A stretch of DNA of 64,000 nucleotides. It comes from Catellatospora coxensis. Lineage in GTDB: Bacteria > Actinomycetota > Actinomycetes > Mycobacteriales > Micromonosporaceae. The position numbers and the translations under genes were made by a program. Each line of letters starts with the position of its first letter. The stretch's first letter is position 1. The stretch spans positions 1-64,000 of the forward strand of contig NZ_BONI01000016.1 of assembly GCF_016862635.1 (NCBI RefSeq), given 5' to 3'. The notes below the pieces were generated by a model. The model did not search any database. It was not told the DNA's origin and was given only the letters and a program-made list of their open reading frames with translations. Below are positions 32,936 through 63,697 of this stretch, piece after piece.

Positions 32936-33364
32936 ATGAGTGATGATCTTCATATCCGGCTGAGCGTTGACGGCGGGTCGTGGCGTTTGATCCTGCACGG
33001 CGATGTCGATCACCTTGCCGGTGACACGCTGCGGCGTGTCGCGCAGGCCGTCCTGCTGACGCGGCGCATTGCGCAACTGGTCGTCGATCTCAAAGGTGTG
33101 ACATCCGTCGATGACGAAGGTGTTGCGGCCATCGCGGATTGCGGACGCCGGGCCGGCGATCAGGGTATCGACTTCCAGCTGGTCAATCTATCCAGGGTGA
33201 TGCTTGCGGACCTGTTCGAGCGTGCTGGCACTTCGCCGGCTTCTCCGGGTTCACAGCGGCGAAGACGAGGTCCTCGCGCAAGGACGTCCTTCAGCTTCGG
33301 TGGCCTGCGGCCGCCAAGCCGCCCTCTTGCCAGACAACAGCGGGGGCAGCGAACGCGCCCTTGA
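32936..33364 (+). CDS. STAS-domain protein with basic tail
   Basis: A 142-residue protein whose first about 95 residues form a STAS domain. The usual phosphorylation loop D-S-S-G reads D-D-E-G (SVDDEGVAAI), so the acceptor Ser is an acidic residue. The last about 45 residues are Arg/Ser/Pro-rich (SQRRRRGPRARTSFSFGG) and unstructured. It lies between ion-transport genes and carries the shared leader element, so it may link cation stress to an anti-sigma or STAS-partner network. Confidence 0.75.
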   Translation: MSDDLHIRLSVDGGSWRLILHGDVDHLAGDTLRRVAQAVLLTRRIAQLVVDLKGVTSVDDEGVAAIADCGRRAGDQGIDFQLVNLSRVMLADLFERAGTSPASPGSQRRRRGPRARTSFSFGGLRPPSRPLARQQRGQRTRP

Positions 33365-48760: not shown

Positions 48761-48776
48761 GTCACGGAACTGTCAT
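48761..48776 (+). promoter_or_regulatory. Direct-repeat box (GTCAC-N6-GTCAT), copy 1
   Basis: GTCACGGAACTGTCAT, 64 nt before the STAS gene at 48841, same strand. One of seven such boxes in 48.7-63.7 kb; the GTnAC-N6-GTnAC layout is that of OmpR-family regulators such as AfsQ1/MtrA. Confidence 0.7.
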
Positions 48777-48840
48777 GGTTCTGCTGCGTGTTCGCCGGGT
48801 CAGCCCGACATCCTCGCCGTAGCGGTCGGAGTCGACGGGA

Positions 48841-49287
48841 GTGCTTCATAGTGGAGCCGAGTTGCTGAGGGTCTGGTCTCGACACGGACCGGCGGGCACG
48901 GTCCTGACCGTGACGGGACGGCTGGACGCCACCACGGCTGGGACGTTGGCCCGACTGCTCGGCGAACGGCTTCGCCACGACTGCCGCACGGCGATCATCG
49001 TCGACGTCGGCGGCTTGGACTCCATCAGCGTGGCCGGGGTGGGCGTTCTCACGCTCTTTCACGCCGCGGCGAGCCGATTGGGCGTGCCGCTGCGCGTGCT
49101 CCGGCCCAGCAGCGCGGTCCGCGCCATGATCGATGCCAGCGGCAGCGGCATGCTGGCGGCAGCCGTGCGATCGGCTGGCCCGCTGCGGTGGCGACAGGCA
49201 CGGTGCCGCGCACGCCGGAGTCTGGATCAGCCGGTGCGGACTTCTCGGCGCCGGCACTCTGGTGGCTGCCACATGCCGGCGCGCTAA
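48841..49287 (+). CDS. STAS-domain protein with basic tail
   Basis: About 148 residues from GTG 48841. STAS domain at about 15-108 (GTVLTVTGRLDATTAGTLARLL, IIVDVGGLDSISVAGVGVLTLF). The phosphorylation loop has become S-V-A-G with no acceptor Ser at the usual place. The last about 35 residues are Arg-rich with Cys (RWRQARCRARRSLDQPVRTSRRRH). It is a single gene behind a direct-repeat box. Confidence 0.75.
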   Translation: MLHSGAELLRVWSRHGPAGTVLTVTGRLDATTAGTLARLLGERLRHDCRTAIIVDVGGLDSISVAGVGVLTLFHAAASRLGVPLRVLRPSSAVRAMIDASGSGMLAAAVRSAGPLRWRQARCRARRSLDQPVRTSRRRHSGGCHMPAR

Positions 49288-49485
49288 CAGTGCGGCACCT
49301 CCGATCGCTCGCCGAAGCCAGACGTGATGCGGGTGCTCAGGCGGGACCGGAGCTGTCGGAAATCCGCTCTGCCATATGGGCGGATGTTGCCATCGCCACT
49401 GCGGGTGATCTGCTGTGTACCGCACCGATCTCGGATGCGCAGATCGCATCCGAAATGGACATCGGACACTAACCTAGGAGGGCTG

Positions 49486-51381
49486 GTGACCCGTCACCGT
49501 GCCGTCGCTGCGACCCTGGTCGTGGCTCTCGTCACCGCAATTGCGGCCGCATGTTCCGACGACGGCGACTTCGCGGAGTCGGGTACCGCTACCGGAGTCG
49601 TCGTCTCAGGGCCTAACCGGGCCCGCGGGGGCGACCTCAAGATCTCGGAGGCGGCGGACCCGCCGTCGATGCCGCCAGGCTTCCGGCAGGTGGGCAAGGT
49701 GACCCACATCGCGGGCAGGCTCAAGGATTACGTCACCATCACCTTACCGATCCCCCCGGAGGTCGGCGCGGCGCAACTGCCCGAGCTGCGGGTGATGCGC
49801 CACGACGGCAAGGCCTGGGGCGCGATCGTGCCGCAGCAGATCGACATAGACCGGCGCCAGGTGAAGGTCACCACAAATGCGTTCTCCCTCTGGAGCCTGA
49901 GCACCTGGGACGTCGAGCAGGCCGCTGCCGACTTCCTGGCCGGCTCCCGGAACCTGCTCAGCAGCGGCGGGTGGTGGATTCTGGGCTCCGTGGGCAAGTT
50001 CGCGGTCAACCCTCCGATCACCGAATGCCGCTACCCGGCGCTGACGCTGCAGATTGATCTGTCGTCGTTCGTCGACGACGCGATCGCCTGCCCGAAGTTC
50101 CTGCCCGACGACAGGGAGCGGCACACCTACCGGCTGCATCTGAGCAACCTTCGCGGGTTCCCGGTGATGATGCGGCTGCCCCGCGGCGTCACTGCGCACG
50201 CGGTGACGCCGCAGGCGGCCAACCCGATCTCGCAGCTGCTGGCCTATGTAGGGGCCCGCCACGGCATGGCGGTCCTCCCCGGCGGAGGCGAACTGGTGCT
50301 GACGGTCAACGCGCTCGACCTGCCCAAGGATGCCCGGATCTCCGGTGCGCTGGACCTGACCGGCGTCGTGCTGGACACCGGCGTAGCGATCATCCGCTTG
50401 GTCACCGGATACGAGTGGAACGACGAGGTCATCAAGGCGATGGGCGAGGCCCAGGAATTCGCCGACGCGGTCGCGTGTGTGATGGACCAGAGCGAGGGCA
50501 TCGCCAAGCGGATCAGCGGTATGAGCGCCGGTCAGCTGGCACGGGAGCTGTCGTACTCAGCCGCGGCGTGCATGTCGACCGAGCTCATCGTGCGGGCGGT
50601 GTCGGTCTACGCCAAGTTCCAGCACCAGGTGTACAACGAGGACCAGGCACTGCAGGAGGCCCTGCGGACCGCCGTGCGCCGGGTGGTCGCGATCATCGAG
50701 AACGCCCCGGCGCTGACCCAGATAGTGGCGACGATGCTGGCGGCGCGCAGCGGCCGGACGACGTTCACACTGGCGATGACTCTGCAGGACCCGGCGGTGG
50801 ACGCCCTGTACCGGGCGCTGCCCACGCCGGGGTCCGGCGGATTCCGGCGTGGATACGGCCCCTCGGCCGGGCCGGCGAACGGCGGACAGCTCACGTTCGC
50901 CGGCACGCCGTGCATCGCCGACGAACGGCCCCAGTCGTGGGCGGCCTGGACCCACGCCGCCGCCTACGGCCGCTACGACCGCGACGGTGTCTACGCCGTG
51001 TCGGTGCAGGTGGCCTACATCAAGCCCGAACACAAGGCGGCCGTACGGGACCTGTTCACCTACCTGGCGGGCAGCACGGCACGATGCGAGCACCGCGCCG
51101 ACGGAGACATCGTCGAGCTGGACAACTACGACAGCAGGCAGTACGGCAGCGTCACCGACTACCGGGTCGGGATCGCCGGCTGGGAGAACAGTGAGTCCTT
51201 CCGCTACGGGGTCGCCGCCGCCTTCGACCCGACCAAGAGTCTGGTAGTGCATGTCAGCGTCAGCGCCGACACCTACGCCGACGTCGATGCCGATGACATC
51301 AAGGAAGCGCTGGCCGAGGCCCTCGACTATGTCGTCAACAAGCTCGATGTGTCCCTGGGAACGACGTACCTGCCGCGGTAG
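49486..51381 (+). CDS. Large uncharacterised lipoprotein
   Basis: 631 residues. GTG 49486 follows a strong TAGGAGG site and gives a lipoprotein signal (ATLVVALVTAIAAAC, Cys about 25). The mature part starts with a beta-sandwich-like segment (VTITLPIPPEVGAAQLPELRVMRHDGKAWGAIVP). A helical middle follows, and the C-terminal domain (about 455-630) is rich in alternating strands (AYGRYDRDGVYAVSVQVAYI, VTDYRVGIAGWENSESFRYGVAAAF). No catalytic motif was recognised. It is probably anchored on the outer face of the membrane. Confidence 0.75.
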   Translation: MTRHRAVAATLVVALVTAIAAACSDDGDFAESGTATGVVVSGPNRARGGDLKISEAADPPSMPPGFRQVGKVTHIAGRLKDYVTITLPIPPEVGAAQLPELRVMRHDGKAWGAIVPQQIDIDRRQVKVTTNAFSLWSLSTWDVEQAAADFLAGSRNLLSSGGWWILGSVGKFAVNPPITECRYPALTLQIDLSSFVDDAIACPKFLPDDRERHTYRLHLSNLRGFPVMMRLPRGVTAHAVTPQAANPISQLLAYVGARHGMAVLPGGGELVLTVNALDLPKDARISGALDLTGVVLDTGVAIIRLVTGYEWNDEVIKAMGEAQEFADAVACVMDQSEGIAKRISGMSAGQLARELSYSAAACMSTELIVRAVSVYAKFQHQVYNEDQALQEALRTAVRRVVAIIENAPALTQIVATMLAARSGRTTFTLAMTLQDPAVDALYRALPTPGSGGFRRGYGPSAGPANGGQLTFAGTPCIADERPQSWAAWTHAAAYGRYDRDGVYAVSVQVAYIKPEHKAAVRDLFTYLAGSTARCEHRADGDIVELDNYDSRQYGSVTDYRVGIAGWENSESFRYGVAAAFDPTKSLVVHVSVSADTYADVDADDIKEALAEALDYVVNKLDVSLGTTYLPR

Positions 51382-51489
51382 CGGGTGGCGGGCTTCGGCG
51401 TGCGACGTTCTCTCGTCTGCCGGAGCCCGCCACCAGCCGTGACGTCGCAGCGGTGTCGCGTTCTTCTCGTAGCTGTTTGTCGGGTGGGT

Positions 51490-52062
51490 TCACTGCGTGA
51501 CGAGGTTGGCGTAGTCGGCGCAGGTCAGCGGGTCTTCGGTGAGAGCGCCGTTGCCGCGCGGCACGCCTACCCGTTGCCCTTGGCGGGTGAAGACGACCTG
51601 GTTGATGTCGGGGCGGCTGGACAGGGTGCACACCAGCTGCCCGAAGGCCAGGACGTCGTCGCTGCGGCCGGTGCCTTCCAGCGCGGTGGACAGCTCGACG
51701 GTGGCCGATCCGGCGGCGTCGGTGGCGGAGTTGATCGCGGTGGTGCCGGTCAGGGCGCTGGTGAGCCCGGCTTCCTGCTCGGCGGGGATCGGCCCGGCGA
51801 GCAGGTCGGCGAGTAGTTGCTGGGCGTCGGGTGGGGTGGGTGCCTTGCGTTCGACGGCGACGAGGTGGCCGTCGTTGAGCAGGTACAGCGTCTCGGTGAT
51901 CGGCCCGGATGCCGCGACCGCGGGTGTCGGGGCGGCCGTGGGGGCGTTGTTACCGGTCTGTTCGACTTCGCGGGCGGTGTCCTCGACGGGCACACCGCAT
52001 CCGGCGACAAGCGCGAGCAGGGTCAGGCCTGCGACGGCTGCTGCGATGCGGTGGCGTCTCAC
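51490..52062 (-). CDS. GerMN-domain lipoprotein of a two-component operon
   Basis: 190 residues with lipobox LLALVAGC (Cys about 19) and a GerMN domain (TETLYLLNDGHLVAVERKAP, LLADLLAGPIPAEQEAGLTSAL, VELSTALEGTG, LVCTLSSRPDINQVVFTRQGQRV). The GTG start overlaps the kinase stop (GTGA). The regulator-kinase-GerM lipoprotein order is like MtrA-MtrB-LpqB and AfsQ1-Q2-Q3, in which the lipoprotein modulates the sensor. Confidence 0.9.
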   Translation of the reverse strand: MRRHRIAAAVAGLTLLALVAGCGVPVEDTAREVEQTGNNAPTAAPTPAVAASGPITETLYLLNDGHLVAVERKAPTPPDAQQLLADLLAGPIPAEQEAGLTSALTGTTAINSATDAAGSATVELSTALEGTGRSDDVLAFGQLVCTLSSRPDINQVVFTRQGQRVGVPRGNGALTEDPLTCADYANLVTQ

Positions 52063-53417
52063 GTGCGCTCCGGGGGTAGTTCGATGCGGAAGCGGGCGCC
52101 GCCGCCGGGCCGGTCGAGGACCTGGACGGTGCCGGCGTGGGCGGTGACGTGCTGGGCGACCAGGGCCAGGCCGAGTCCGGTGCCGTCGTTGTCGCCGCGG
52201 GCTCCGGCGGAGCGGCCGCGGACGAACCGGTCGAAGATCGCGTCGCGGTCGTCGGGGCTGACGCCGGGGCCTTCGTCGTCGACTTCGAGGACCTGCAGGC
52301 TGTGGTGGCGGGTCAGCCGGACGGCGACGGCGCCGCCGCCATGGGCTTGGGCGTTGTCGATGAGGTTGGCCAGGACCTGTTCGATGCGGCGCCGGTCGAC
52401 GTGCCACACCGGGCTGGTGTCGGCTTCGACGGTGACCAGCGACGTGGGTAGTCCGCGCTGGCGGCACAGCTGCCGGGCGATGGCGGCGACGTCGACGGGG
52501 GAGCTGTCGGCAGGCTGGTCGCTGCGGGCGAGTTCGAGCAGGTCGGTGACGAGTTCCTGGAAACGCTGCACCTCTTCGACGACCAGGCCGGTGGCTTGGG
52601 CGGTGCGCGGGTCGAACTGGTCACGGCGGCGTTCCAGGACGCTGGCGGCGGCGGACAGGGTCTGCAGCGGGGAGCGCAGTTCGTGGCTGACGTCGGCGGC
52701 GAATCTGCGGTCGCGTTCCATCCGGGCCGACAGCTGGTCGACCATGTGGTTGAACGAGGTCGCCAGCCGGGCCAGGTCGGGTTCGGTCGCGGGGTCCAGG
52801 CGTGCGGCGAGGTTGCCGGCGGCGATGTCGCGGGCGGCGTCGGCGACAGTGGCCAACGGGCGCATCACGCGGCGGCTGGCGTACATACCCATCAGCGCTC
52901 CGGCAACCGCGGTGCCTGCGGCGACGAGGGTCAAAACCAGGCCGAGGACTTTGAGGTTGCCGTCGAGTTCGCCCATGTAGTCGATCTCGTACAGGGCCGT
53001 GTCGGGGCCGAGCGGGACGCCGAACACCATCGCGGGACGGTCGCCGATACGCACTCGCTGCACACCGGCCTTGCCTTGGCTGACCATGGTCATGACGCTG
53101 TCGGGCAGGCTGTCGGTGAGGGTGTTGTCGACCACGGTGCGGGAGTAGAAGTCGCCGTCGTGCCACAGCAGCGCGCGGCGGTTCGCCCCGGTGTCCAGTG
53201 AGCGCAGCACGGGCAGCACTTCGGGATCGTCGACGTCGAGGCCGGCGCGTACGATCCGGGCGTCGGACATCACGGCCCGCTTGGCGGTGCGTTCGCGTTC
53301 GTCGAGCAGGAACCGTTCGGTCAGCTGGTAGGACAGCAGCGCCATCGCCGCCGACACCAGCAGGGCGCCGACGGCGAACCCGGCGGTGACCCGGGCGCGC
53401 AGACCGGGGCGCTTCAT
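52059..53417 (-). CDS. Sensor histidine kinase
   Basis: A 452-residue membrane kinase. Two helices (about 13-35 and 160-182) flank an extracytoplasmic sensor. HAMP is at about 185-237 and the DHp box is SHELRSPLQTLS (phospho-His). CA motifs: N-box LIDNAQAHGGGAV, G1 DDEGPGVS, F-box IFDRFVRG and G2 GTGLGLALV. ATG 53417 overlaps the regulator stop (ATGA). The sensor loop has no recognised ligand motif. Confidence 0.93.
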   Translation of the reverse strand: MKRPGLRARVTAGFAVGALLVSAAMALLSYQLTERFLLDERERTAKRAVMSDARIVRAGLDVDDPEVLPVLRSLDTGANRRALLWHDGDFYSRTVVDNTLTDSLPDSVMTMVSQGKAGVQRVRIGDRPAMVFGVPLGPDTALYEIDYMGELDGNLKVLGLVLTLVAAGTAVAGALMGMYASRRVMRPLATVADAARDIAAGNLAARLDPATEPDLARLATSFNHMVDQLSARMERDRRFAADVSHELRSPLQTLSAAASVLERRRDQFDPRTAQATGLVVEEVQRFQELVTDLLELARSDQPADSSPVDVAAIARQLCRQRGLPTSLVTVEADTSPVWHVDRRRIEQVLANLIDNAQAHGGGAVAVRLTRHHSLQVLEVDDEGPGVSPDDRDAIFDRFVRGRSAGARGDNDGTGLGLALVAQHVTAHAGTVQVLDRPGGGARFRIELPPERT

Positions 53418-54094
53418 CGCGGCATCTTGTAGCCGAGGCCGCGTACGGTCACCAGCCGCCGCGGGGAGCCCGGGTCGTCTTCGATCTTCTGGCGCAGGCG
53501 GCCGACGTGCACGTCGACGAGGCGTTCGTCGCCGAAGTCGTACTCCCAGACCCGTGCCAGCAGCTGCTGGCGCGACAGGACCTGGCCTGCGTGTTCGGCC
53601 AGCTCGCACAGCAGCCGGAACTCGGTGCGGGTCAGCGCGAGCGGCTGCCCGTGCAGCAGCACCTCGCCGGCCTGGGCGCGCACCTGCAGGTCGCCGAGGT
53701 CCAGCTGCGCCTGCGGCGCTGCGGACGGTCCGCTGCGGCCGCGTCGGCGCAGCGCCCGCAGCCGCGCCGACAGCTCCTTGACCGCGACGGGCTTGACCAC
53801 GTAGTCGTCGGCCCCGGCCTCGAGCGCTGCGACGATGTCGTGGGTGTCGTCACGGGCGCTGACGACCACGATCGGCACGTCATCGTCGCGGCGCAGCTCA
53901 CGGATGGCCTGAAACCCGTCGATACCGGGCAGCATCAGGTCGACCAGCACCGTATCGGCGGGTTCACGCCGCTGACGCAGCAGCCCCTCCTCCGCCGTCG
54001 CGGCGGTGTGCACCGTGTAGCCCTCGTCCTCCAGCGCCAGGCTCAGCGACAGGCGGATCCGGTCATCGTCTTCGATCAGCAGTACCGCAACCAC
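53414..54094 (-). CDS. OmpR-family response regulator
   Basis: A 226-residue regulator. Receiver domain with acidic pocket LLIEDDD, phospho-Asp in VLVDLMLPG and Lys in YVVKPVAV. The winged-helix domain ends DERLVDVHVGRLRQKIEDDPGSPRRLVTVRGLGYKM. GTG 54094 is chosen by family length; no Shine-Dalgarno is visible. A GTCAC-N6-GTCAC box lies 61 nt upstream, so autoregulation is likely. It is the best candidate to bind the seven boxes in this region. Confidence 0.93.
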   Translation of the reverse strand: MVAVLLIEDDDRIRLSLSLALEDEGYTVHTAATAEEGLLRQRREPADTVLVDLMLPGIDGFQAIRELRRDDDVPIVVVSARDDTHDIVAALEAGADDYVVKPVAVKELSARLRALRRRGRSGPSAAPQAQLDLGDLQVRAQAGEVLLHGQPLALTRTEFRLLCELAEHAGQVLSRQQLLARVWEYDFGDERLVDVHVGRLRQKIEDDPGSPRRLVTVRGLGYKMPR

Positions 54095-54155
54095 CGCGGA
54101 ATCATGCCCCGACGTCCGTGTCCACGACAGGGCTGAGCTGCCGATCTGGCGATTT

Positions 54156-54171
54156 GTCACACAACTGTCAC
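54156..54171 (+). promoter_or_regulatory. Direct-repeat box, copy 2 (divergent promoter of regulator and STAS genes)
   Basis: GTCACACAACTGTCAC, the most perfect direct repeat of the set. It lies between the response regulator (start 54094, minus) and the STAS gene (start 54268, plus). Confidence 0.78.
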
Positions 54172-54267
54172 GGGTTCGCGGAACTTCCGCCACACCCGGC
54201 GCAGATCGTCTGACCCACCCGAGGCGAGGAGGCCAGCAGTGATCAAGTTCGAGGCGAGCGCGGGCCG

Positions 54268-54711
54268 GTGTCGCCGGTGAGTGGGCAGTTGCGGCTGCGG
54301 CTGTACTCCAGCCCGCTCGGCCTGTACCTGACCGCCGAGGGCAGGATCGACGCCAGCACCGTCGGTCAGGTCACCACCGCCGTCGACCTCGCCCTGACCC
54401 GGCTCAGCCCGGTACGGATCACCGTCGACCTCAGCGCCGTCACCTACCTCGACATCGCCGGTGTCGCGACCCTCATCGCATGCCGGCGCGACGCCCGGAC
54501 CAGGGGCGCGCACCTCACTGTCGCACAGCCCAGCAGCCAGGTGCGCAGCACGGTCCTGGCCTGCGGAGCCGGCGAGCTGCTGGCGGGCGCCGCCACCGAG
54601 CCGCTGCTGCCGGCCGCTGACACGTGGCGGCGGTGCCGCCGCCCGAGCCTGCGTTGCCTGCGCCCGCCGGGCCGGGCACGCAGCATCCCACGCAACGAAC
54701 CCACCCGCTGA
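54268..54711 (+). CDS. STAS-domain protein with basic tail
   Basis: 147 residues from GTG 54268 (GTG 54277 is possible). STAS domain at 8-105 with the loop D-I-A-G (TYLDIAGVATLI), so Ala replaces the phosphoacceptor. The tail is Arg/Pro-rich (WRRCRRPSLRCLRPPGRAR). First gene of a short run of two STAS genes; the next begins 46 bp later. Confidence 0.8.
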   Translation: MSPVSGQLRLRLYSSPLGLYLTAEGRIDASTVGQVTTAVDLALTRLSPVRITVDLSAVTYLDIAGVATLIACRRDARTRGAHLTVAQPSSQVRSTVLACGAGELLAGAATEPLLPAADTWRRCRRPSLRCLRPPGRARSIPRNEPTR

Positions 54712-54757
54712 CCGTCACGTCGCGGGTCTGCCGGGGTCACGCCGTCGAGGAGGGCCG

Positions 54758-55201
54758 ATGTCCGAGCGTCTGCACCTGCGCCTGCATGCGGCTGCGGGCG
54801 GGCTGTGCCTGGACGCTCGCGGCCGCTTGGACGGCGTGTCCCGTGGGCATCTGGCACGAGCGCTGAAAGCCATCTTCGATCACCTTCCGGCGCGGCGGCT
54901 GGTGCTCGGCCTCTACCGACTCGACGCCATAGACCGGGCCGGCGTCGCCGCGCTGATCGCGGCACGGGAGCAGGCCCGACGTCGCGGGATCGACTTCGTG
55001 GTGTGCGGAGCGCAGGACCATGTGCGCGCCGCACTGGCCGCTGTCGGGGCCGGCGATCTGCTCCTCGATGGCGCTGACGCGTCGTTGCTGCATCTGCCGG
55101 CGCGGTTGCGCAGGCGTCGTGTCCGCACGGCCGGATGCGGCTGCCCGCGTCCGACCCGTCCGCAGGGCAGGCCGCTGCGGTGCGTGCGGCCAGCGCGTTG
55201 A
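54758..55201 (+). CDS. STAS-domain protein with basic Cys-containing tail
   Basis: 147 residues; ATG 54758 with GAGGAGGG. STAS loop D-R-A-G (DAIDRAGVAALI). The tail RRRRVRTAGCGCPRPTRPQG is basic with three Cys. It is close in sequence to the STAS proteins at 54268 and 59074 (all begin LHLRL or LRLRL). Confidence 0.82.
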   Translation: MSERLHLRLHAAAGGLCLDARGRLDGVSRGHLARALKAIFDHLPARRLVLGLYRLDAIDRAGVAALIAAREQARRRGIDFVVCGAQDHVRAALAAVGAGDLLLDGADASLLHLPARLRRRRVRTAGCGCPRPTRPQGRPLRCVRPAR

Positions 55202-55228
55202 CCGCGGCCGCGCGGCTGTCGCGGTCGT

Positions 55229-55591
55229 TCAGCGGCCGCCTGCGGCGTGCCTCGGTTGCCGCTGCCCGGCAGGCACGACTTGCACCACGCCGTGGGGATC
55301 GGCGGCCCGCAGTGTCATCGCGATCTGCGGCAGCGTCGAGCGGACGCTCAGCGTCCCGCCTGCGTACCGCATCCGCTGGTGTGTCTGCATGATCAGCATC
55401 GCCCCGGCGACGTCCAGGGAACAGCATTTGGCCATGTCGAGTACCAGGACCTCCGGCCGCAGCCGCATCGCGTCGTCCAGCACCCGGCTGGCCTGGTCGG
55501 CTGACCAGGCGTCCAAGTCACCGGCGATGGAGACCTCGACCTCGGCTACCCGCCAGGCGGCTACCAGGCCGCGACTGTGGCCGTCGATCAT
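55229..55591 (-). CDS. STAS-domain protein
   Basis: 120 residues; ATG 55591 with GGAGGG upstream. STAS loop D-V-A-G (CSLDVAGAMLIM). It lacks a long basic tail. It faces its own direct-repeat box at 55655-55670, 63 nt upstream. Confidence 0.82.
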   Translation of the reverse strand: MIDGHSRGLVAAWRVAEVEVSIAGDLDAWSADQASRVLDDAMRLRPEVLVLDMAKCCSLDVAGAMLIMQTHQRMRYAGGTLSVRSTLPQIAMTLRAADPHGVVQVVPAGQRQPRHAAGGR

Positions 55592-55654
55592 GACACCCTC
55601 CTTCCTGCCGGTGCTGAGCATCGAAGCCGTTCATGGCGGCTGGCACGCGATCAC

Positions 55655-55670
55655 ATGACAGTCCTGTGAC
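55655..55670 (-). promoter_or_regulatory. Direct-repeat box, copy 3
   Basis: Minus-strand GTCACAGGACTGTCAT, 63 nt before the STAS gene start at 55591. Confidence 0.75.
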
Positions 55671-55812
55671 AGCGCATACGCGCCCTCGGGCCGGCGAGTT
55701 CCGCCGCGGCTCTCACCTTCGCGTTACCGGTTCAGCGTCCGTACGTCGCGGCGGCCGGCGGCTACGGCACGGCCTGCGACCTGCGGTGACGTGTACGCGT
55801 CGGGGTGCCTTT

Positions 55813-55828
55813 GTCACACAACTGTCAT
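55813..55828 (+). promoter_or_regulatory. Direct-repeat box, copy 4
   Basis: GTCACACAACTGTCAT, 63 nt before the start at 55892 of the STAS / OtsA-like / DraG-like operon. Confidence 0.78.
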
Positions 55829-55891
55829 GGGTTTGCGTGGTGATCGCCGTACCGCCTGGGAAGGGTGAGGTCTACCAGCAGGGAGGTAAGG

Positions 55892-56278
55892 GTGGACGAA
55901 CTCAGCCGCGCGTCGCAGACGACCCAGACGGTGCCGCTGGTCGAGGTCCAGGTTTGCGGGGACCTCGACGCCAGCTCCGCACCAGGTGTCAACGACGTGC
56001 TGTCCGAGGCATTGGCGCTGCACCCCCGGCAGCTGGTGATCGATCTGGCCGGGTGCGACGTCATCGACGCCGCCGGGATCCTGCTGCTGCTGGACGCGCA
56101 CCGGCGCGCCATCCGCGACGGCGGCATGGTCGCGCTGCGCTCCCCGTCGGCCAGAGCCCGCCGCAACCTGAAGCTGGCGAAAGTCGACCGCGTGCTGCAG
56201 GTCATCTCCCCCGACGGCGATCTGACCCTCGGCATCTCCCCCGACAGCGACGCACGCCCCGGCGAGGTGAACCGATGA
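55892..56278 (+). CDS. STAS-domain protein, first gene of the pseudo-OtsA operon
   Basis: 128 residues from GTG 55892 (GGGAGGTAAGG site). STAS domain with loop D-A-A-G (DVIDAAGILLLL) and a conserved last helix (SARARRNLKLAKVDRVLQVI). It lacks a basic tail. The stop overlaps the ATG of the OtsA-like gene, so the products are made in step. Confidence 0.82.
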   Translation: MDELSRASQTTQTVPLVEVQVCGDLDASSAPGVNDVLSEALALHPRQLVIDLAGCDVIDAAGILLLLDAHRRAIRDGGMVALRSPSARARRNLKLAKVDRVLQVISPDGDLTLGISPDSDARPGEVNR

Positions 56279-57663
56279 ACCCCACCGACCGATACCAGCT
56301 GATCATGGCCGCTGACCGGGTGCCACCGACCGACCCGGACGACTGCATCGATCACGTCGACGCTGGGCTTTCCGCCTTGCGGCCCTACACCGACCTGCAT
56401 ACCGGGACCTGGCTGTCCGCCGACACCACCGATGCGGGCACGGAGGACGTCGCGCAAGCCGCGGCGCAGCTGCGTTCGCTGTGCCACCACCAGCCGGCCG
56501 TCTTCGCCGAGGACTGGTTCGACGACTACCTGGCCGTCAACCGCAGGCTCGCTGCGACCGCCACGTGCCTTGCCGACGAGCAGGCGGTCATGTGGGTGCA
56601 CGGGCACCGGCTGCAGCTGCTGCCGGGCATCATGCGGCGGCTGCGGCCGGACCTGGGCACCGTGATGCAGCTGCACAGCACGTTCCCGCCGGCGGAATTG
56701 TTCGTGCGGCTGCCCGAGCACCGGGAGCTGCTGTCGGGGCTGCTGGGCGCCGACGTCGTCGTGTTGCCGCACCGACGTGCGGCGACCAACCTGCTCGACC
56801 TCGCCGGGCGGGTACATGGCCTGCCGGTGCGCGACGGGCAGATCGCCGTCGGCAACCGGCGGGTGCGGGTGCTGGCCTACCCGATGCCCGCCGACACGGC
56901 CGGTATTCGGCGGCTGGCCCGGTCGGCCCCGGTGCGCGTCCGCGCGCAGGAGATCCGCGGCGCGCTGCGGGTCGCCGGGCCGGTGCTGCTGTCGGTGGCC
57001 GGCTGGGACCTGGCCGAAGCGGTGGAGCAGCGGCTGGCCGCATTCGACCGGTTCCTGGCCGAGCACCGCCCCGCCCCGGCGACCGTCGCGCTGCTGCACG
57101 TCGGCTGCGGCGAGCCGCAGACACCTGCCGAGCACGGGCAGCGCGAACGCGTCGACCGGCTCATCGCTAAGATCAACGGAACGTACGCCGAGATCGGGCA
57201 GCCCGTCGTGCACTACCTGCGGGCAACCCCCGACCGGCGGGAACTGGCGTCGCTGTATCTGGCGAGCGACACGATCCTGGCCACGCCGGACCATCACGGC
57301 ACCGCGGCGCACGCGCACGAGTTCGTCGCCGCGCACGGCGGGGCACCGGTCGTGGTCAGCGAGCTGACCTGCGACGGCGCGGACCTGCCGGGTGCGGTCG
57401 TGGTCAACCCGCACGACACCGCGGCGTTCGCCGCCGCGATCGCCCGGGTGGCCGGGATCAGCGCACCCGTGCCCATGGCCGGATCGGCTGGGACGGAGCC
57501 CGCGCCTGAGGCGTGGGCCCGGCGGCTGATGGCCGTCGTCCGTGCCCGTGCCGCCGCACCGTCGCAGGCCGCCCGTCGCCGCCAGTCCACGAGCGCGGGC
57601 ACCACACGTCCGGCCGGGTATCCGGCCGTGCATGACAATCCGAGGAAGATCGACGCAAGGTGA
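56275..57663 (+). CDS. Degenerate trehalose-6-phosphate-synthase-like protein (GT20 pseudoenzyme)
   Basis: 462 residues that align over their length with the OtsA at 59515, but key residues are changed. WVHDYHLQL is WVHGHRLQL; DRLDYTKG, which supplies the Arg and Lys that hold UDP and glucose-6-phosphate, is [18 protein letters not shown] is DHHGTAAHAHE and the N-terminal NRLPV is absent. Fold-keeping segments remain (LLPGIMRRLRPDLG, GLLGADVV, RRELASLYLASD). Catalysis looks impossible. A regulatory or scaffold role, as for yeast Tps3/Tsl1, is inference. It is coupled to the STAS gene before and the DraG-like gene after it. Confidence 0.85.
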   Translation: MNPTDRYQLIMAADRVPPTDPDDCIDHVDAGLSALRPYTDLHTGTWLSADTTDAGTEDVAQAAAQLRSLCHHQPAVFAEDWFDDYLAVNRRLAATATCLADEQAVMWVHGHRLQLLPGIMRRLRPDLGTVMQLHSTFPPAELFVRLPEHRELLSGLLGADVVVLPHRRAATNLLDLAGRVHGLPVRDGQIAVGNRRVRVLAYPMPADTAGIRRLARSAPVRVRAQEIRGALRVAGPVLLSVAGWDLAEAVEQRLAAFDRFLAEHRPAPATVALLHVGCGEPQTPAEHGQRERVDRLIAKINGTYAEIGQPVVHYLRATPDRRELASLYLASDTILATPDHHGTAAHAHEFVAAHGGAPVVVSELTCDGADLPGAVVVNPHDTAAFAAAIARVAGISAPVPMAGSAGTEPAPEAWARRLMAVVRARAAAPSQAARRRQSTSAGTTRPAGYPAVHDNPRKIDAR

Positions 57664-58655
57664 CATTCCCGCTCGACCAGCAGCAGCTGCTGCGGCGCGC
57701 GCACGGCTGCCTGCTGGTGGCCGCGTGCGCCGACCTGATCGCCGCCCCGCTCAACGGCCGTACCGTTCCCGACCCCGCGCAGGTGGAGGTGATCCTGCGC
57801 GCCTCACCGCGCCTGCTGCAACCCAGCCCGGCCGCGTTGCAGATGACCGTGCTCGCCGAGCATCTGGCGGCCCACGACGGCCGGGTCAACGACGACGGTC
57901 TGGCCTCGGAGCTGGCCAAGCAGTGGCCGGACGACCGGCCGGATCTTGCCGGTTCCGGCACTGCCCGGGTGCTCGGCGCGGTGTCGGCAGGCACCCGCTG
58001 GTGGCAGGTGGCCCCTAAAATCCACCACGGCGCCGGCAGTTTCGGCAGCGTGGCCGCTGTTCGGGCCTGCGCTGCCGGTCTGGTGCCCGGCACGGGTATC
58101 GCGGCAGCCGCGGCACTGGGTCGGCGGTCGGCGGGGATCACGCACACTCATCTGCTGGCCCGTGACGGTGCGGCGGCGACCGCGACTGCGGTGGCGCTGG
58201 CCGTGCGCAGCCAGCCCGGCGCACCGGCCGACAAGTACCGGTTCCTGTCGGCGGTGGCGGCGCAGATGCGCACGGCCGAGTTCCGCTCGGCGCTGCGCAC
58301 GGTCCAGACCCTGGTCCGGCACCGCAGCGCCCCTGCCGAGACCGCCGCGACGCTGGGTGCCGACCGCACCGCCCTGCGCAGCGTGCCCGCCGCCCTGACG
58401 GCGTTCCTGCGCCATCCGGACGAGCCGACCGCCGCGATCCGCTATGCGCTGATGATGGGCGGTCAGACCCAGACCACCGCCGCGATCGTCGGAGCGATCA
58501 GCGGTGCCCGCCACCCCGAGCACACGGTGGCCATGCCGTGGCGGCCCGACGTCGTACGGCTGCTGCGCCTGCGTGCGACCGCGGCCGGGCTGTCGGCGAT
58601 CCCCGGCCGGGGCGGCAGCCGAACCGCCGGACGCCACCACGAGGGGCAGTCATGA
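57660..58655 (+). CDS. ADP-ribosylglycohydrolase-like pseudoenzyme (DraG fold)
   Basis: 331 residues with the DraG/ARH fold recognisable throughout. The binuclear Mg2+ ligands are lost: the usual TDDTQMT reads PAALQMT, and GGDTDT reads GGQTQT (MMGGQTQTTAAIVGAISGARHP). The segments GSFGSVAAVRACAAGL and THTHLLARDGAAATATAVALAV fit the family. It might still bind ADP-ribose or ADP-ribosylated protein. GTG 57660 overlaps the preceding stop; its stop overlaps the next STAS gene. Confidence 0.78.
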   Translation: MTFPLDQQQLLRRAHGCLLVAACADLIAAPLNGRTVPDPAQVEVILRASPRLLQPSPAALQMTVLAEHLAAHDGRVNDDGLASELAKQWPDDRPDLAGSGTARVLGAVSAGTRWWQVAPKIHHGAGSFGSVAAVRACAAGLVPGTGIAAAAALGRRSAGITHTHLLARDGAAATATAVALAVRSQPGAPADKYRFLSAVAAQMRTAEFRSALRTVQTLVRHRSAPAETAATLGADRTALRSVPAALTAFLRHPDEPTAAIRYALMMGGQTQTTAAIVGAISGARHPEHTVAMPWRPDVVRLLRLRATAAGLSAIPGRGGSRTAGRHHEGQS

Positions 58656-59077
58656 GCGACGAACTCGCGTTGCGCATGGCGGGCCGGCAGCGGCAGCTGC
58701 GGGTCACCGCCGTCGGCGGGCTGCATGCCGACAACGCCCACCGGCTGCCCAAGGTCGTTCTCGGCCTGCTGCGCCAGTACGCACCCGAGGCGGTCCTACT
58801 CGACCTGGGCGCGGTCACCCGCATCGACACGGTCGGCGTCGCGGCGGTCGTGCTGTGCCAGAAGACCACCGCCCGACACGGTGCGACCTTCACCCTGGAC
58901 GGCTGCTCCCCCGCCGTCCGGTCGGCACTGCGCGCCCACCACGCCGACCACCTGTTGCCGCCCGAGCCGCCACGCCATCACGCGATGCCCCTGCGGCGCC
59001 GCCACACCGGCACCGTCTGCCCAGGCCGATCCCACCCGCAGTGGTCCACCGGCCACGGTATCGGCGGGCGGAGGTGA
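58652..59077 (+). CDS. STAS-domain protein with basic tail
   Basis: 141 residues, ATG on an ATGA overlap. STAS loop D-T-V-G (TRIDTVGVAAVV), Val at the acceptor site. The tail after about 100 is His/Arg-rich (RHHAMPLRRRHTGTVCPGR). Third gene type of the same operon. Confidence 0.8.
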   Translation: MSDELALRMAGRQRQLRVTAVGGLHADNAHRLPKVVLGLLRQYAPEAVLLDLGAVTRIDTVGVAAVVLCQKTTARHGATFTLDGCSPAVRSALRAHHADHLLPPEPPRHHAMPLRRRHTGTVCPGRSHPQWSTGHGIGGRR

Positions 59078-59487
59078 CAGGATCACGTCTGCACCTGCGG
59101 CTGCAGGCCACGGCGACAGGTCTGCGGCTGGTCGCCTGCGGACGGCTGGACGCCGCGACCGGGCGGCAGCTCGGCCAGGCCATCAGCCTGGCCCTGCACC
59201 GGCTGCGCGCCCAGCGCCTCACCCTGGACCTGACTGCCGTGAATGCCATAGACGCAGCCGGTGTCGCGGCACTGATCCGGGGCCGGGTGGAAGCCGACCG
59301 CTGTGATGTCGTGCTGACCATCGCCGACCCGTCCCCCGCTCTGCTGCACGCGATGCGGCTTCATGCCGCCGGCGCCCCGTCCGGTGGTGAGACCGGGCTG
59401 GTCTGCATACACGTTCCGAGACCCGTCCGGCGGTGCGTGCTGCGCCCGCGTCCGCTGCGACATCGCCGTCTGCATCCGATGCGGTGA
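59074..59487 (+). CDS. STAS-domain protein with basic tail
   Basis: 137 residues from GTG 59074, overlapping the preceding stop. STAS loop D-A-A-G (NAIDAAGVAALI). The C-terminus HVPRPVRRCVLRPRPLRHRRLH is strongly basic. It lies 27 bp before the intact otsA, so all these genes are one transcription unit. Confidence 0.8.
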   Translation: MTGSRLHLRLQATATGLRLVACGRLDAATGRQLGQAISLALHRLRAQRLTLDLTAVNAIDAAGVAALIRGRVEADRCDVVLTIADPSPALLHAMRLHAAGAPSGGETGLVCIHVPRPVRRCVLRPRPLRHRRLHPMR

Positions 59488-59514
59488 ACAGACCTGACTG
59501 GAGGCCCTACACCG

Positions 59515-60963
<1,449 letters not shown>

Positions 60964-61122
60964 AGGCGCCGGCACAGGCTAATGGCAGCCGCGGCTGGCG
61001 GCGAGGCGTACGCAGCGACCACCGTTGCTTCGCGGTCGTCTGCGCGTGCTGCGCTCGGCCGGTCGTTGCCGCCCGACAGCGCGAGCGTCGAGTCCTGACG
61101 GCCGGTGGCTGCAGTCGTGGCC

Positions 61123-62037
61123 TCAGTGTGGCCGGTTCTGCCCGGTGAGCGGGTAGCCGTAGCGCTGCATCAAAGGCAGGGCCAGCGCTGTGGTGGCTAG
61201 CCGGGTCGCGACCGGCAGCTGGTCGCGCCAGGCGTCGTCGGCGCGCAGCTCCACCGTGCCGGTGCGGAAGCGGCCGGGATTGCCCGACACGGTGTGGTTG
61301 GCTGCCAGCTCGACCGTCCGGTCGCCGACGAACGGGCTCGACACCGGCGCCACGTCGACGAACCTCAGCAGCTCGTCGACCGCGCCGCGGGGGTCGGCGG
61401 CGAAGTCCTCGTAGCGCTGCAGGCGGTAGCGTCCCGGAAACGCCAGCGAAGTCCACTCCGTCAGGCCGTTCCACGACAGCCACTTCATGGCGCTGTCGTA
61501 CGGGTCGTGTTCGAGCATCACGTCGGGGGCCGAGCTGTCCAGCTGCTTCTTGCGGCGCTGCCACGAGTGCGCGACCGCCCTGGGGTCGCGCACCACCTGC
61601 AGCAGGTACGGCGTGATACCGGCGGGCTGGCGCGCGGCCACCGCAGCGCCCGAGGGCAGCTTTGACGAGTCGATGATGAGCTCGGCACCGGTCACCTCGG
61701 CGATCGCCCGGTACAGCCGCGTGAAGATGCCCACCAGCTGGTGGCCTTGCCGCAGCAGGCGCGGCGCGTGCCTGGCCCGGGCAGTGTCACGCTGCCACTT
61801 CTTGACGCGGCGGGGATCGGGAACGTCGTCGCCGAAGGCGCAGCGCAGCACGTCGCGCCACAGCGCGCAGGCGCGCACCGGTTGCCCGCATCCGCAGCTG
61901 CGCCCGCCGAGCAGGCCCCGTTCGAACAGGAACCACAGCTCGCCCGCGGTGAACACGCCGGGATGGGAACCGAGCACATTGTCGATGATCGTGGTGCCGC
62001 TACGTCCCCATCCGGCCAGGTAGAGCACTTTCACCAT
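61123..62037 (-). CDS. Sulfotransferase
   Basis: 304 residues. 5'-PSB loop for [22 protein letters not shown]; 3'-PB loop: [18 protein letters not shown] Cys-rich piece ([15 protein letters not shown]) lies at about 55-70. ATG 62037 starts directly before the conserved strand VKVLYLAG. It probably sulfates a carbohydrate or lipid. A direct-repeat box (62084-62099) lies 46 nt upstream, placing it with the STAS genes. Confidence 0.9.
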
Positions 62038-62083
62038 CCGACGAGGATGCCTCGCGAACGTCAGGACAGGGTCAAGATCCCGT

Positions 62084-62099
62084 TTGACAATCCTGTGAC
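62084..62099 (-). promoter_or_regulatory. Direct-repeat box, copy 5
   Basis: Minus-strand GTCACAGGATTGTCAA, 46 nt before the sulfotransferase start; the weakest second half-site of the set. Confidence 0.65.
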
Positions 62100-62181
62100 A
62101 ATCTCGGCACCGCAACCTCTCGCACACGATTCGCTACTCACGGTCAAATGACTGCGCGCCTGCTCCGGTACGGCAGCCTGT

Positions 62182-62499
62182 TCACCACGACTCAGTGTGG
62201 TCTTCGACTGCTGCTCTCAGCCGGTCCGGACCTCCGGACAGCGAGAACACCAGCCCGCGCCGCTCGGCTTCAGCCCGGCACGCCTGCACGGCGGCCGCGC
62301 CGGCATCGTCGACGTCGGTGACGTCATCCGCCACCACTTCGCAGACCGCGGCACCGTGACGGCGCATGGCGTCGCACGCGACCCTGGTCAGCAGTTGCGC
62401 GCTGGCGGCATCCAGCCGCCCGGCCACCGTCAGCCGCAGCCGATGGGCTCCCACGCCGATGCCGACCCGCAGGTACGGAAAAGACCCCACCGCCGTCAC
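62182..62499 (-). CDS. STAS-domain protein
   Basis: 105 residues from GTG 62499 (overlapping the stop of the gene before it). STAS loop D-D-A-G (TDVDDAGAAAVQAC). It is a diverged member, with a C-terminal end after SGGPDRLRAAVEDHTESW. Its coupling to a DraG-like gene repeats the arrangement at 57660-59077. Confidence 0.75.
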   Translation of the reverse strand: MTAVGSFPYLRVGIGVGAHRLRLTVAGRLDAASAQLLTRVACDAMRRHGAAVCEVVADDVTDVDDAGAAAVQACRAEAERRGLVFSLSGGPDRLRAAVEDHTESW

Positions 62500-63458
62500 G
62501 CCGGCTCCGCCACGGCACCCAGCGCGCGGGCAGCGCGGCGAGCCCGGTTGTCGTCGGCAGGGGTGCGCCACGAGCGGGGCGTGAGCAGCTGCGGCGAGCG
62601 GGCGCCGACCAGCGCAGCGGTGATCATGGGGATGGCGCGGTTGCCGCCGGCCGACTGCAGCGCAAACGACAGAGCCGCATCCGGTTCCTGCGGGTGGCGC
62701 AAGTAGGCCGCGAGCGCGGCGGGCACGGTCCGCAGCGCGGTGTCGGTGTTGCCGACGGTCCCGACGACCTCGGCAGGGCCGGCCCGGTGGCGCACCAGCG
62801 CCCGGACGATGTTCAGGCAGCTGCGCAGCTCCGGGCCGCGGACCTGCCCGGCGACGATGTCCAGGAACCGGCTGGCGTCAAGGCGCCGGTCCGGGTAGCC
62901 GTATGCCGCCAGCGCCACGGCGACCGCGGTCGCGGCCGCCCCGTCCTGGGCCAGCGGGTGGGTGTGGGTCACCGCGGCTGCCCGCCTGGCCAGCTGCGCG
63001 ACGGCTCCGATCCCGGTTCGGGGCAGCAGCCCGACCGCGATGGCCCGGACCGCCGCGCCGCTGCCGTAGGAGCCCTGCCCGCCGTGCAGCGCCGACGCGG
63101 TCTCCCACCACGGACGGCCGCCACGCACCTCGGCCAGGACCAGAGCCGCCCCGTCAACGGCGGCACAGGGATCTGCCTGCCACCCTGCGGCAAGCTCGGC
63201 GGCCAGGTCGTCCTCGTCGAGCTGTCCGCCTCGCGCGCCGAGGTGCTCGGCCACCACGAACGGCAGACCCGTGCTCGCGGGCACCGCGATGGATGCGGCC
63301 GGCAGCCGCATGATGCCGTCGACCTTCTCGGGATCGGGCAGCCGGACGGCGCCGAGTTCGACGGCGAAACGCTCGGCGCAGGCTGACAGCAGCAGGCCGC
63401 GGTGGACGACGTCATGCCAGGAGGTGGCGACCGGCGTCGTCGACGGTGTGGTGATCAC
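62496..63458 (-). CDS. Second ADP-ribosylglycohydrolase-like pseudoenzyme
   Basis: 320 residues from GTG 63458, chosen for its GAGAGGAC site; the frame is open to 63521 but that start would touch the regulatory box. It is paralogous to 57660-58655 (GSYGSGAAVRAIAVGLLP, THTHPLAQDGAAATAVAVALA). The metal motifs are gone here too: the DDTQM region is STGLPFV and GGDTDT is SAGGNRA. With the downstream STAS gene it forms a two-gene operon. Confidence 0.75.
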   Translation of the reverse strand: MITTPSTTPVATSWHDVVHRGLLLSACAERFAVELGAVRLPDPEKVDGIMRLPAASIAVPASTGLPFVVAEHLGARGGQLDEDDLAAELAAGWQADPCAAVDGAALVLAEVRGGRPWWETASALHGGQGSYGSGAAVRAIAVGLLPRTGIGAVAQLARRAAAVTHTHPLAQDGAAATAVAVALAAYGYPDRRLDASRFLDIVAGQVRGPELRSCLNIVRALVRHRAGPAEVVGTVGNTDTALRTVPAALAAYLRHPQEPDAALSFALQSAGGNRAIPMITAALVGARSPQLLTPRSWRTPADDNRARRAARALGAVAEPA

Positions 63459-63529
63459 GGGCGGTCCTCTCGGCGTGGGTGCGATCCGGGAAGAATCCGC
63501 GCTGCTCATAGCAGTGGTCACGCGGTTTC

Positions 63530-63545
63530 ATGACAGTTGCGTGAC
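63530..63545 (-). promoter_or_regulatory. Direct-repeat box, copy 6
   Basis: Minus-strand GTCACGCAACTGTCAT, 71 nt before GTG 63458. A TATGAG about 20 nt downstream of it could be the -10. Confidence 0.75.
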
Positions 63546-63567
63546 AAGGCGTCGGGCGCCTTGTCAC
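63541..63567. repeat. Perfect inverted repeat next to box 6
   Basis: GTGACAAGGCG-TCGGG-CGCCTTGTCAC, 11-bp arms, sharing its first GTGAC with box 6. It places an opposite-facing GTCAC at 63563-63567, so it may be a dyad binding site rather than a terminator. Confidence 0.6.
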
Positions 63568-63575
63568 GCACCGGG

Positions 63576-63611
63576 GCCGTGGTGCCCGGCGACGATGCCG
63601 GACACCACGGC
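63576..63611 (-). terminator. Hairpin downstream of the gene at the window edge
   Basis: GCCGTGGTGCCCGGC / GCCGGACACCACGGC with loop GACGAT and one mismatch. It could end transcription of the minus-strand gene whose stop is at 63794. Confidence 0.45.
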
Positions 63612-63681
63612 GACGAGCCCGACTTCCTGAACGGGATCAGTTGTTCAACTCGGCAGGTCGCGGCTCGTCGTGGACCCAGGC

Positions 63682-63697
63682 ATGACGTTCCTGTGAC
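63682..63697 (-). promoter_or_regulatory. Direct-repeat box, copy 7 (distal)
   Basis: Minus-strand GTCACAGGAACGTCAT, about 137 bp upstream of box 6 in the same intergenic region. Its distance from the gene suggests an accessory site. Confidence 0.55.

What the first reader, a model, noticed from the sequence alone, without database searches (positions are those of the whole stretch)
48761..63697. Seven GTCAC-N6-GTCAT boxes tie a two-component system to STAS, DraG-like and sulfotransferase genes
The direct repeat occurs at 48761, 54156, 55655(-), 55813, 62084(-), 63530(-) and 63682(-). Most copies are on the coding strand, 46-71 nt before a start codon. One lies between the response regulator and a divergent STAS gene. 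The layout equals the known GTnAC-N6-GTnAC sites of AfsQ1/MtrA-type OmpR regulators. I noticed none in the other 48 kb by eye. This points to a local regulon whose members (STAS-only proteins, dead OtsA, dead DraG, sulfotransferase) are not a known set.
Basis: partly seen in the sequence, partly recalled or inferred. Interest (0 to 1): 0.88.

Follow-up and report, generated by a model that had tools for sequence, protein, structure and literature searches.

The report
Two-component regulon of STAS and pseudoenzyme genes
A soil actinomycete carries a sensor-regulator pair whose likely DNA landing site recurs before a set of STAS signalling genes and look-alike enzymes that have lost catalytic residues; related bacteria keep much of the same arrangement, so it looks like a real control circuit that I did not find described.

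Summary
The seven boxes are real: five exact, two one-mismatch, about 20 bits above the next window site. In the 9.35 Mb genome the sharper pattern occurs 8 times: 6 here and two before paralogous STAS operons. The box appears to belong to the adjacent OmpR-type regulator: 77 of 90 fetched regulator loci in Micromonosporaceae carry it in the 400 nt upstream (8 of 1800 shuffles), and it tracks this regulator, not the AfsQ1-like gene. Targets are mainly STAS genes, often with pseudo-OtsA and pseudo-DraG; box-STAS-OtsA-like recurs in four other genera. Alignment of 108 boxes shows weaker half-sites continuing an 11-bp period and a fixed -10 (A+51, T+55) in 87, an activator-type promoter aimed at the STAS gene. 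Binding, phosphorylation and function are not shown.

The parts
53414..54094 (-). Response regulator (RR; Response_reg + Trans_reg_C), probably leaderless
   Evidence: Pfam; matches at E 1e-60 or better in 108 of 200 family genomes (two of them, G040 and G085, only by a 54% match); -10 nATGAT at -12..-7 of the start codon in 45 aligned promoters
52059..53417 (-). Histidine kinase (HAMP, HisKA, HATPase_c); overlaps the RR stop by 4 nt
   Evidence: Pfam; coordinates
51490..52062 (-). Lipoprotein-like protein with Germane (GerMN) domain; overlaps the kinase gene by 4 nt
   Evidence: Pfam
54156..54171 (+). Box in the RR/STAS intergenic region (GTCACACAACTGTCAC), with A+51/T+55
   Evidence: a box upstream of the RR is held in 77 of 90 RR loci
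54268..54711 (+). STAS-only protein, divergent from RR
   Evidence: PF13466
54758..55201 (+). STAS-only protein, second after that box
   Evidence: PF01740
55655..55670 (-). Box with A+51/T+55
55229..55591 (-). STAS-only protein
   Evidence: PF13466
55813..55828 (+). Box with A+51/T+55; heads a six-gene run
55892..56278 (+). STAS-only protein
   Evidence: PF01740
56275..57663 (+). Pseudo-OtsA (GT20 family, RLDYTKG replaced by GWDLAEA)
   Evidence: PF00982; alignment; dN/dS about 0.18-0.30 in five comparisons
57660..58655 (+). Pseudo-DraG (GGDTDT replaced by GGQTQT)
   Evidence: PF03747; alignment
58652..59077 (+). STAS-only protein
   Evidence: PF13466
59074..59487 (+). STAS-only protein
   Evidence: PF13466
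59515..60963 (+). OtsA with RLDYTKG kept
   Evidence: PF00982; TIGR02400 519.3 bits, below the cut-off of 564.85; motif read
48761..48776 (+). Box with A+51/T+55
48841..49287 (+). STAS-only protein
   Evidence: PF01740
63530..63545 (-). Box with A+51/T+55
62496..63458 (-). Pseudo-DraG (GGNRAI); start codon chosen by eye
   Evidence: PF03747; motif read
62182..62493 (-). STAS-like protein, downstream of pseudo-DraG
   Evidence: PF13466 E 2.8e-6, below curated cut-off
63682..63697 (-). Second, distal box without A+51/T+55 or clear extra half-sites
62084..62099 (-). Weakest box (GTCAA), no A+51/T+55, no clear extra half-sites
61123..62037 (-). Sulfotransferase-like protein, doubtful member
   Evidence: PF13469

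Best explanation
The box is the operator of the adjacent OmpR/PhoB-family response regulator. The phosphorylated RR would bind tandem direct repeats with an 11-bp period (GTCAC at +2, GTCAT at +13, weaker GCG-like at +24 and GCCA at +35, the last two over the -35 region) and recruit RNA polymerase to a poor -10 (nAnnnT) at a fixed distance. It would thus switch on STAS-only genes and, with them, pseudo-OtsA and pseudo-DraG genes. RR, kinase and Germane lipoprotein genes overlap like a coupled operon, with a probable leaderless promoter beside the box, so autoregulation is possible. Shown by sequence: the box, its conservation, promoter layout, gene content, and which regulator it tracks. Inferred: binding, activation, phosphorylation, and that the STAS proteins, whose usual phospho-acceptor position is Ala or Val in the eight cluster copies (by eye), work with the dead enzymes as binding partners.
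For: Seven sites far above background, clustered in the genome. Box of 13 bits or more upstream in 77 of 90 RR loci against 8 of 1800 shuffled regions, all 77 on the strand opposite the RR. Strict box pattern in 15 of 26 RR-bearing and 1 of 35 RR-less genomes, Fisher p=1.4e-6; no association with the AfsQ1-like gene, p=0.75. On C70 RR and kinase genes follow box-STAS-OtsA* on the same strand. At 30 of 30 fetched Catellatospora sites (39 listed, 9 not fetched in that call) the nearest seed match downstream is STAS (26), OtsA* (2) or DraG* (2), 49-257 nt away. A+51 and T+55 in 87 of 108 non-redundant boxes, other offsets 0-14.
Against: No binding or expression data. Outside the genus 11 of 19 strict sites have a STAS, OtsA or DraG match within 170 nt (one of them, L182, weak at 1e-5), 3 only at 343-543 nt, 5 none by these seeds. 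13 of 90 RR loci lack the box at 13 bits; 7 of these have the RR behind a box-led STAS-OtsA* or OtsA* gene, 6 do not fit so simply. 23 of 90 RR loci show no STAS ORF by the window-based model. The strict pattern misses 11 of 26 RR genomes. The co-occurrence test partly counts the box at the RR's own promoter and treats related genomes as independent; the AfsQ1 threshold was set by me. AfsQ1-, MtrA- and GlnR-type sites look alike, so cross-binding is possible. Many of the 108 promoters are orthologous, so their columns are not independent. C19 lacks T+55.
Confidence: 0.82

Rival explanations
1. The boxes are sites of another OmpR-type actinobacterial regulator in the genome (AfsQ1-like, MtrA or GlnR), and the neighbouring two-component system is only a target.
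For: Published sites have the same form: GlnR box GTnAC-n6-GTnAC in S. venezuelae (PMC10704036, passages), MtrA CYGTKAYSTGNBCGTGACCY in Actinoplanes deccanensis (PMC10714768, passages). AfsQ1-like loci L140-L142 have CTGTCACAGACCTGTCACA, 23.4 bits by this matrix.
Against: The box pattern does not track the AfsQ1-like gene (5 of 17 against 11 of 44) and is almost absent from genomes without this RR (1 of 35), although MtrA and GlnR are expected to be general there (recalled, not tested).
Confidence: 0.12
2. The box is the -35 region of an alternative (ECF-type) sigma factor promoter.
For: TGTCAC resembles some ECF -35 elements (recalled); the box has a fixed direction relative to the gene.
Against: The strongest fixed -10-like element lies at +51/+55, over 30 bp beyond the second half-site, too far for a -35/-10 pair with the box; repeats follow an 11-bp period. 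The elements at +22 to +26 and +33 to +38 could still be read as parts of another promoter.
Confidence: 0.04
3. The repeats are passive copies left by recent duplication of STAS promoters, without a common regulator.
For: OtsA* genes of the window, C19 and C70 are 62-63% identical paralogues, and STAS and DraG* genes are also repeated in the genome.
Against: The box is kept upstream of the RR in many genera, and half-sites are fixed while spacer bases and flanks vary.
Confidence: 0.03

Closest known systems
AfsQ1/AfsQ2-SigQ of Streptomyces coelicolor
   Same: OmpR-type RR, 50-52% identical to an AfsQ1-like protein of Streptomyces-like genomes (identified from a recalled sequence); similar box; divergent gene of a sigma-factor pathway (by eye); AfsQ1 activates sigQ (PMC3881020, passages)
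   Different: Not reciprocal best match, separate clade; divergent gene is STAS-only, not an ECF sigma factor; OtsA-like and DraG-like pseudoenzymes as partners; box mostly ends GTCAT
PhoB and the Pho box of enterobacteria (recalled)
   Same: 11-bp direct repeats of CTGTCAT type ending about 10 bp before the -10, activator-type layout
   Different: Not PhoB: TIGR02154 183.7 bits against a cut-off of 296.2; no phosphate genes among the targets seen
MtrA-MtrB-LpqB
   Same: Order RR, kinase, lipoprotein with a Germane domain (LpqB likeness recalled); the kinase's best NCBIfam model is MtrB
   Different: MtrA and MtrB cut-offs missed (214.9/300, 215.7/450); an MtrA-like gene of this genome lies elsewhere (L208, C7, groups with the MtrA row)
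SpoIIAA/RsbV-type STAS anti-sigma factor antagonists
   Same: STAS-only proteins; TIGR00377 and TIGR02886 match one tested copy below cut-off
   Different: Phospho-acceptor Ser replaced in the eight cluster copies (read by eye against a recalled motif); no HATPase_c_2 (RsbW-type) match on this contig at E 1e-5

Membership tests
OmpR/PhoB-family response regulator | Receiver plus winged-helix Trans_reg_C domain | tested here: met
   PF00072 and PF00486
OmpR/PhoB-family response regulator | Tandem direct-repeat operator of about one helical turn | tested here: met
   Period 11 in 108 aligned boxes; that this RR binds them is inferred
OmpR/PhoB-family response regulator | Phosphorylated by the adjacent kinase and binds the repeats | not testable with these tools
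   needs protein work
AfsQ1 | Reciprocal best match with Streptomyces AfsQ1 | tested here: not met
   AfsQ1-like P0009 prefers C18:7535 (59%) to the window RR (52%); P0009 as AfsQ1 rests on a recalled sequence and the divergent sigma gene seen by eye
AfsQ1 | Groups with AfsQ1 in a tree | tested here: not met
   Separate clades, 52 rows 100/100 and 18 rows 100/99
MtrA | NCBIfam equivalog cut-off NF040689 | tested here: not met
   214.9 of 300 bits
CseB | NCBIfam equivalog cut-off NF041733 | tested here: not met
   232.2 of 350 bits
Trehalose-6-phosphate synthase OtsA (56275-57663) | GT20 family match | tested here: met
   PF00982, 187.2 bits
Trehalose-6-phosphate synthase OtsA (56275-57663) | RLDYTKG segment (catalytic role recalled) | tested here: not met
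   GWDLAEA in the alignment to 5jij
ADP-ribosylglycohydrolase DraG/ARH (57660-58655 and 62496-63458) | GGDTDT aspartates (metal binding recalled) | tested here: not met
   GGQTQT by alignment and GGNRAI by eye; no homologue whose motif is printed keeps both aspartates
STAS anti-sigma antagonist | STAS domain | tested here: met
   7 of 8 cluster proteins over the PF13466 or PF01740 cut-off
STAS anti-sigma antagonist | Phosphorylatable Ser/Thr (D-x-S-G, recalled) | tested here: not met
   Eight cluster copies read by eye: Ala in seven, Val in one; the automatic count over relatives is noisy and includes some S/T

The most novel reading that the evidence does not exclude
An undescribed signalling module of Micromonosporaceae: a two-component system distinct from AfsQ1 drives sets of non-phosphorylatable STAS proteins together with GT20 and DraG proteins that have lost catalytic residues while the OtsA-like ones stay under purifying selection. 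The dead enzymes would act as ligand-sensing or scaffold partners of the STAS proteins, linking a surface signal to sugar-nucleotide or ADP-ribose status. Related RRs in other actinobacterial families, in part also divergent from STAS genes, would make it an old arrangement.
Probability: 0.35. Interest if true: 0.8.

Novelty: new variant of a known kind. Interest (0 to 1): 0.64.

Why it matters
It gives an uncharacterised, widely kept two-component system a concrete operator, promoter layout and target list from sequence alone, and joins STAS proteins to conserved pseudoenzymes of two unrelated families. That makes two open questions testable: what STAS-only proteins without a phosphorylation site do, and why bacteria keep OtsA and DraG homologues that lack catalytic residues.

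Tried and rejected
AfsQ1 orthology was my leading idea, because the best match of the RR in Streptomyces-like genomes has a similar box and a divergent ECF sigma gene (by eye); the reverse search, the tree and the co-occurrence test went against it. A sigma-factor promoter reading of TGTCAC was considered and set aside on spacing. An RsbW-type ATPase partner was sought with PF13581: none of the 19 matches at E 1e-5 is on this contig; one on C70 lies 17 kb from the C70 box. The other exact 16-mer hits (C7, C25, C33, C53, C88, C129) score under 12 bits and were dropped as chance. C5:131478 (2 mismatches) and C16:108966 (16.8 bits) were not followed up. Six searches for the regulon, for STAS with OtsA and DraG, and for Catellatospora two-component systems found no description (open-access library only).

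The regular-expression count of STAS phosphosites is unreliable and used only as a remark. The STAS count scored 150 of 254 first-look candidates, so it may be low.
Full report
What was checked. A 19-bp matrix built from them scores them 29.9-35.5 bits, while the next site in 64 kb scores 10.4; each site scores 20.6-34.1 when left out of the matrix. In the 9.35 Mb genome the exact 16-mer occurs 13 times, 6 of them on this contig. GTCACNNNAYTGTCAH occurs 8 times, on this contig (6), C19 (1) and C70 (1), with none for the reversed pattern. The looser TTGTCACNNNACTGTCATG with up to 3 mismatches has 21 hits against 11 for the reversed control, so its weak hits mean little. One more weak site lies just outside the window at 64446 (18.7 bits).

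The genome and its paralogous loci. A scan with the aligned OtsA-like proteins, limited by two peptide patterns, returned 11 loci, each in a Catellatospora record, and ten further genomes of the window's genus are held; the window is taken to be Catellatospora. The C19 and C70 sites precede copies of the same operon: C19 has box-STAS-OtsA*-DraG*, C70 has box-STAS-OtsA*-RR-kinase-Germane-like lipoprotein (the lipoprotein by likeness to the window's). The second arrangement puts regulator and kinase behind a box. In the window the box at 55813 heads six genes, the first five overlapping by 4 nt each: STAS, OtsA*, DraG*, STAS, STAS, then an OtsA that keeps RLDYTKG. Of 25 STAS_2 matches in the genome (150 of 254 candidates scored), ten lie in box-led runs: eight in the window, one on C19, one on C70; six of them are the first gene after a box. 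A ninth STAS match in the window (32993-33229) is not near a box.

Which regulator. Matches to the RR at E 1e-60 or better occur in 108 of 200 Micromonosporaceae genomes; two of these (G040, G085) have only a 54% match that groups with AfsQ1. I examined 90 RR loci (30, 60; the remaining hits were not fetched). In the 400 nt upstream, 77 of 90 have a box of at least 13 bits, against 8 of 1800 shuffled regions; all 77 are on the strand opposite the RR, 26 to 104 nt from its start, and 59 loci with a box of 15 bits or more have it at 57-61 nt. Of the 13 without, 7 are Catellatospora copies of the C70 type (L027-L030, L032, L055, L056), where the box is about 2 kb away at the head of the run; the others are L068, L099, L100, L108 (12.7 bits), L110 (7.5) and L113, a 53% paralogue. 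67 of 90 loci have a STAS ORF by a model built from the window proteins. In 61 family genomes the pattern YTGTCAYRVRACTGTCAY occurs 33 times and its reverse never; in the 11 genomes of the genus, 39 times against 1 for the reverse. In the 61, it is present in 15 of 26 with the RR and 1 of 35 without (G025, 80% complete; G040 counted as without), p=1.4e-6, and shows no link with the AfsQ1-like gene (5 of 17 against 11 of 44, p=0.75). The first test is helped by the box at the RR's own promoter, and related genomes are not independent.

Not AfsQ1. The closest match in Streptomyces-like genomes is a protein whose sequence I recognise as AfsQ1 from memory, with a similar box 111-172 nt upstream and a divergent gene that reads like an ECF sigma factor by eye. 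But that protein's best match in this genome is C18:7535 (59%), and the window RR follows at 52%. In an 89-row tree the window RR falls in a 52-row clade (100/100), with its family members in a 27-row subclade (100/100), apart from an 18-row AfsQ1 clade (100/99). CseB, MtrA and PhoB models score below their cut-offs. Among 28 loci of the class-level search (L115-L142), at least ten have a divergent STAS gene by eye (L115, L116, L117, L120, L124, L126, L130, L132, L134, L135); L133-L135 keep an intact box (24.7-25.9 bits), L123 one of 20.8 bits, and six others a box with a changed right half.

Promoter anatomy. 139 distinct boxes of 18 bits or more reduce to 108 that are less than 75% identical over 119 nt. 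Beyond GTCAC and GTCAT, conserved GCG (+24) and GCCA (+35) continue the 11-bp period, and A+51 and T+55 stand out. 87 of 108 have both; other offsets from 20 to 73 have 0-14. Read as a -10 (nAnnnT, with T avoided at the first place) this puts the start near +62 and the third and fourth repeats over the -35, as in activator-dependent PhoB promoters (recalled). In the window 48761, 54156, 55655, 55813 and 63530 have the A and T; 62084 and 63682 have neither, 64446 only the T; C70 has both, C19 only the A. On the RR side 45 non-redundant promoters show nATGAT at -12 to -7 from the start codon, which reads as a leaderless promoter.

Targets. Of 39 strict sites in 9 of 11 genomes of the genus, 30 were fetched; at all 30 the nearest seed match downstream is STAS (26), OtsA* (2) or DraG* (2), at 49-257 nt (the seeds are the window's own proteins, and five of the 30 sites are the window's). 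Of 19 sites in other genera, 11 have STAS, OtsA or DraG within 170 nt (L182 weakly), 3 have STAS at 343-543 nt, and 5 none by these seeds. L174, L177, L183 and L191, from four other genera, have box-STAS-OtsA-like, and there too RLDYTKG is replaced (GDDPADG, ALDEHEG, GNDPGDG, GTDSGDG, read from the alignments). DraG-like proteins carry GGQTQT, GGQART, GGQVRT, GNRAI, GGPNRA or GPDWHA in place of GGDTDT (the last three read by eye from printed tails; one L014 copy was cut before the motif). OtsA* genes show dN/dS of about 0.18-0.30 in five comparisons, so they look kept, not decaying; DraG* was not tested this way.

Literature. PMC3881020, PMC10714768, PMC10704036 and PMC10733313 were seen in passages only; other papers as search listings. 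The passages of PMC10733313 concern a STAS/RsbW-type sigma system in Actinoplanes missouriensis, not this one. Six searches found no description of this regulon in the open-access library.

Judgement. What is new is a two-component system outside the AfsQ1, MtrA and CseB families that appears to drive STAS and pseudoenzyme operons. No binding or expression has been measured, and what the STAS and dead-enzyme products do is open.

Noticed in passing
49474-51381 (+): 635-aa predicted lipoprotein-like protein downstream of the 48841 STAS gene, no Pfam match at E 0.1
   Followed up: no
45943-48555 (-): 870-aa predicted secreted protein with CHAP and peptidase C39-like domains and repeated units seen by eye
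   Followed up: no
32993-33229 (+): A further STAS_2 match in the window that is not near any box
   Followed up: no
L180, L182, L184: BON-like small proteins downstream of the box in other genera, seen by eye
   Followed up: no
L173: STAS followed by an RsbW-like ATPase gene downstream of the box in another genus, a possible anti-sigma partner (by eye)
   Followed up: no
L001:4446-4461 (contig position 64446, -): Weak box (18.7 bits) upstream of an F420H2-dependent quinone reductase-like gene
   Followed up: partly
L115, L117, L118, L120, L127, L132: RR relatives in other actinobacterial families have a box-like site whose right half reads GCAAA, as if the operator evolved with the regulator
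   Followed up: no
L012:9967 (C16:108966, +) and C5:131478 (-): Two further box-like sites in the genome, 16.8 bits and 2 mismatches
   Followed up: no
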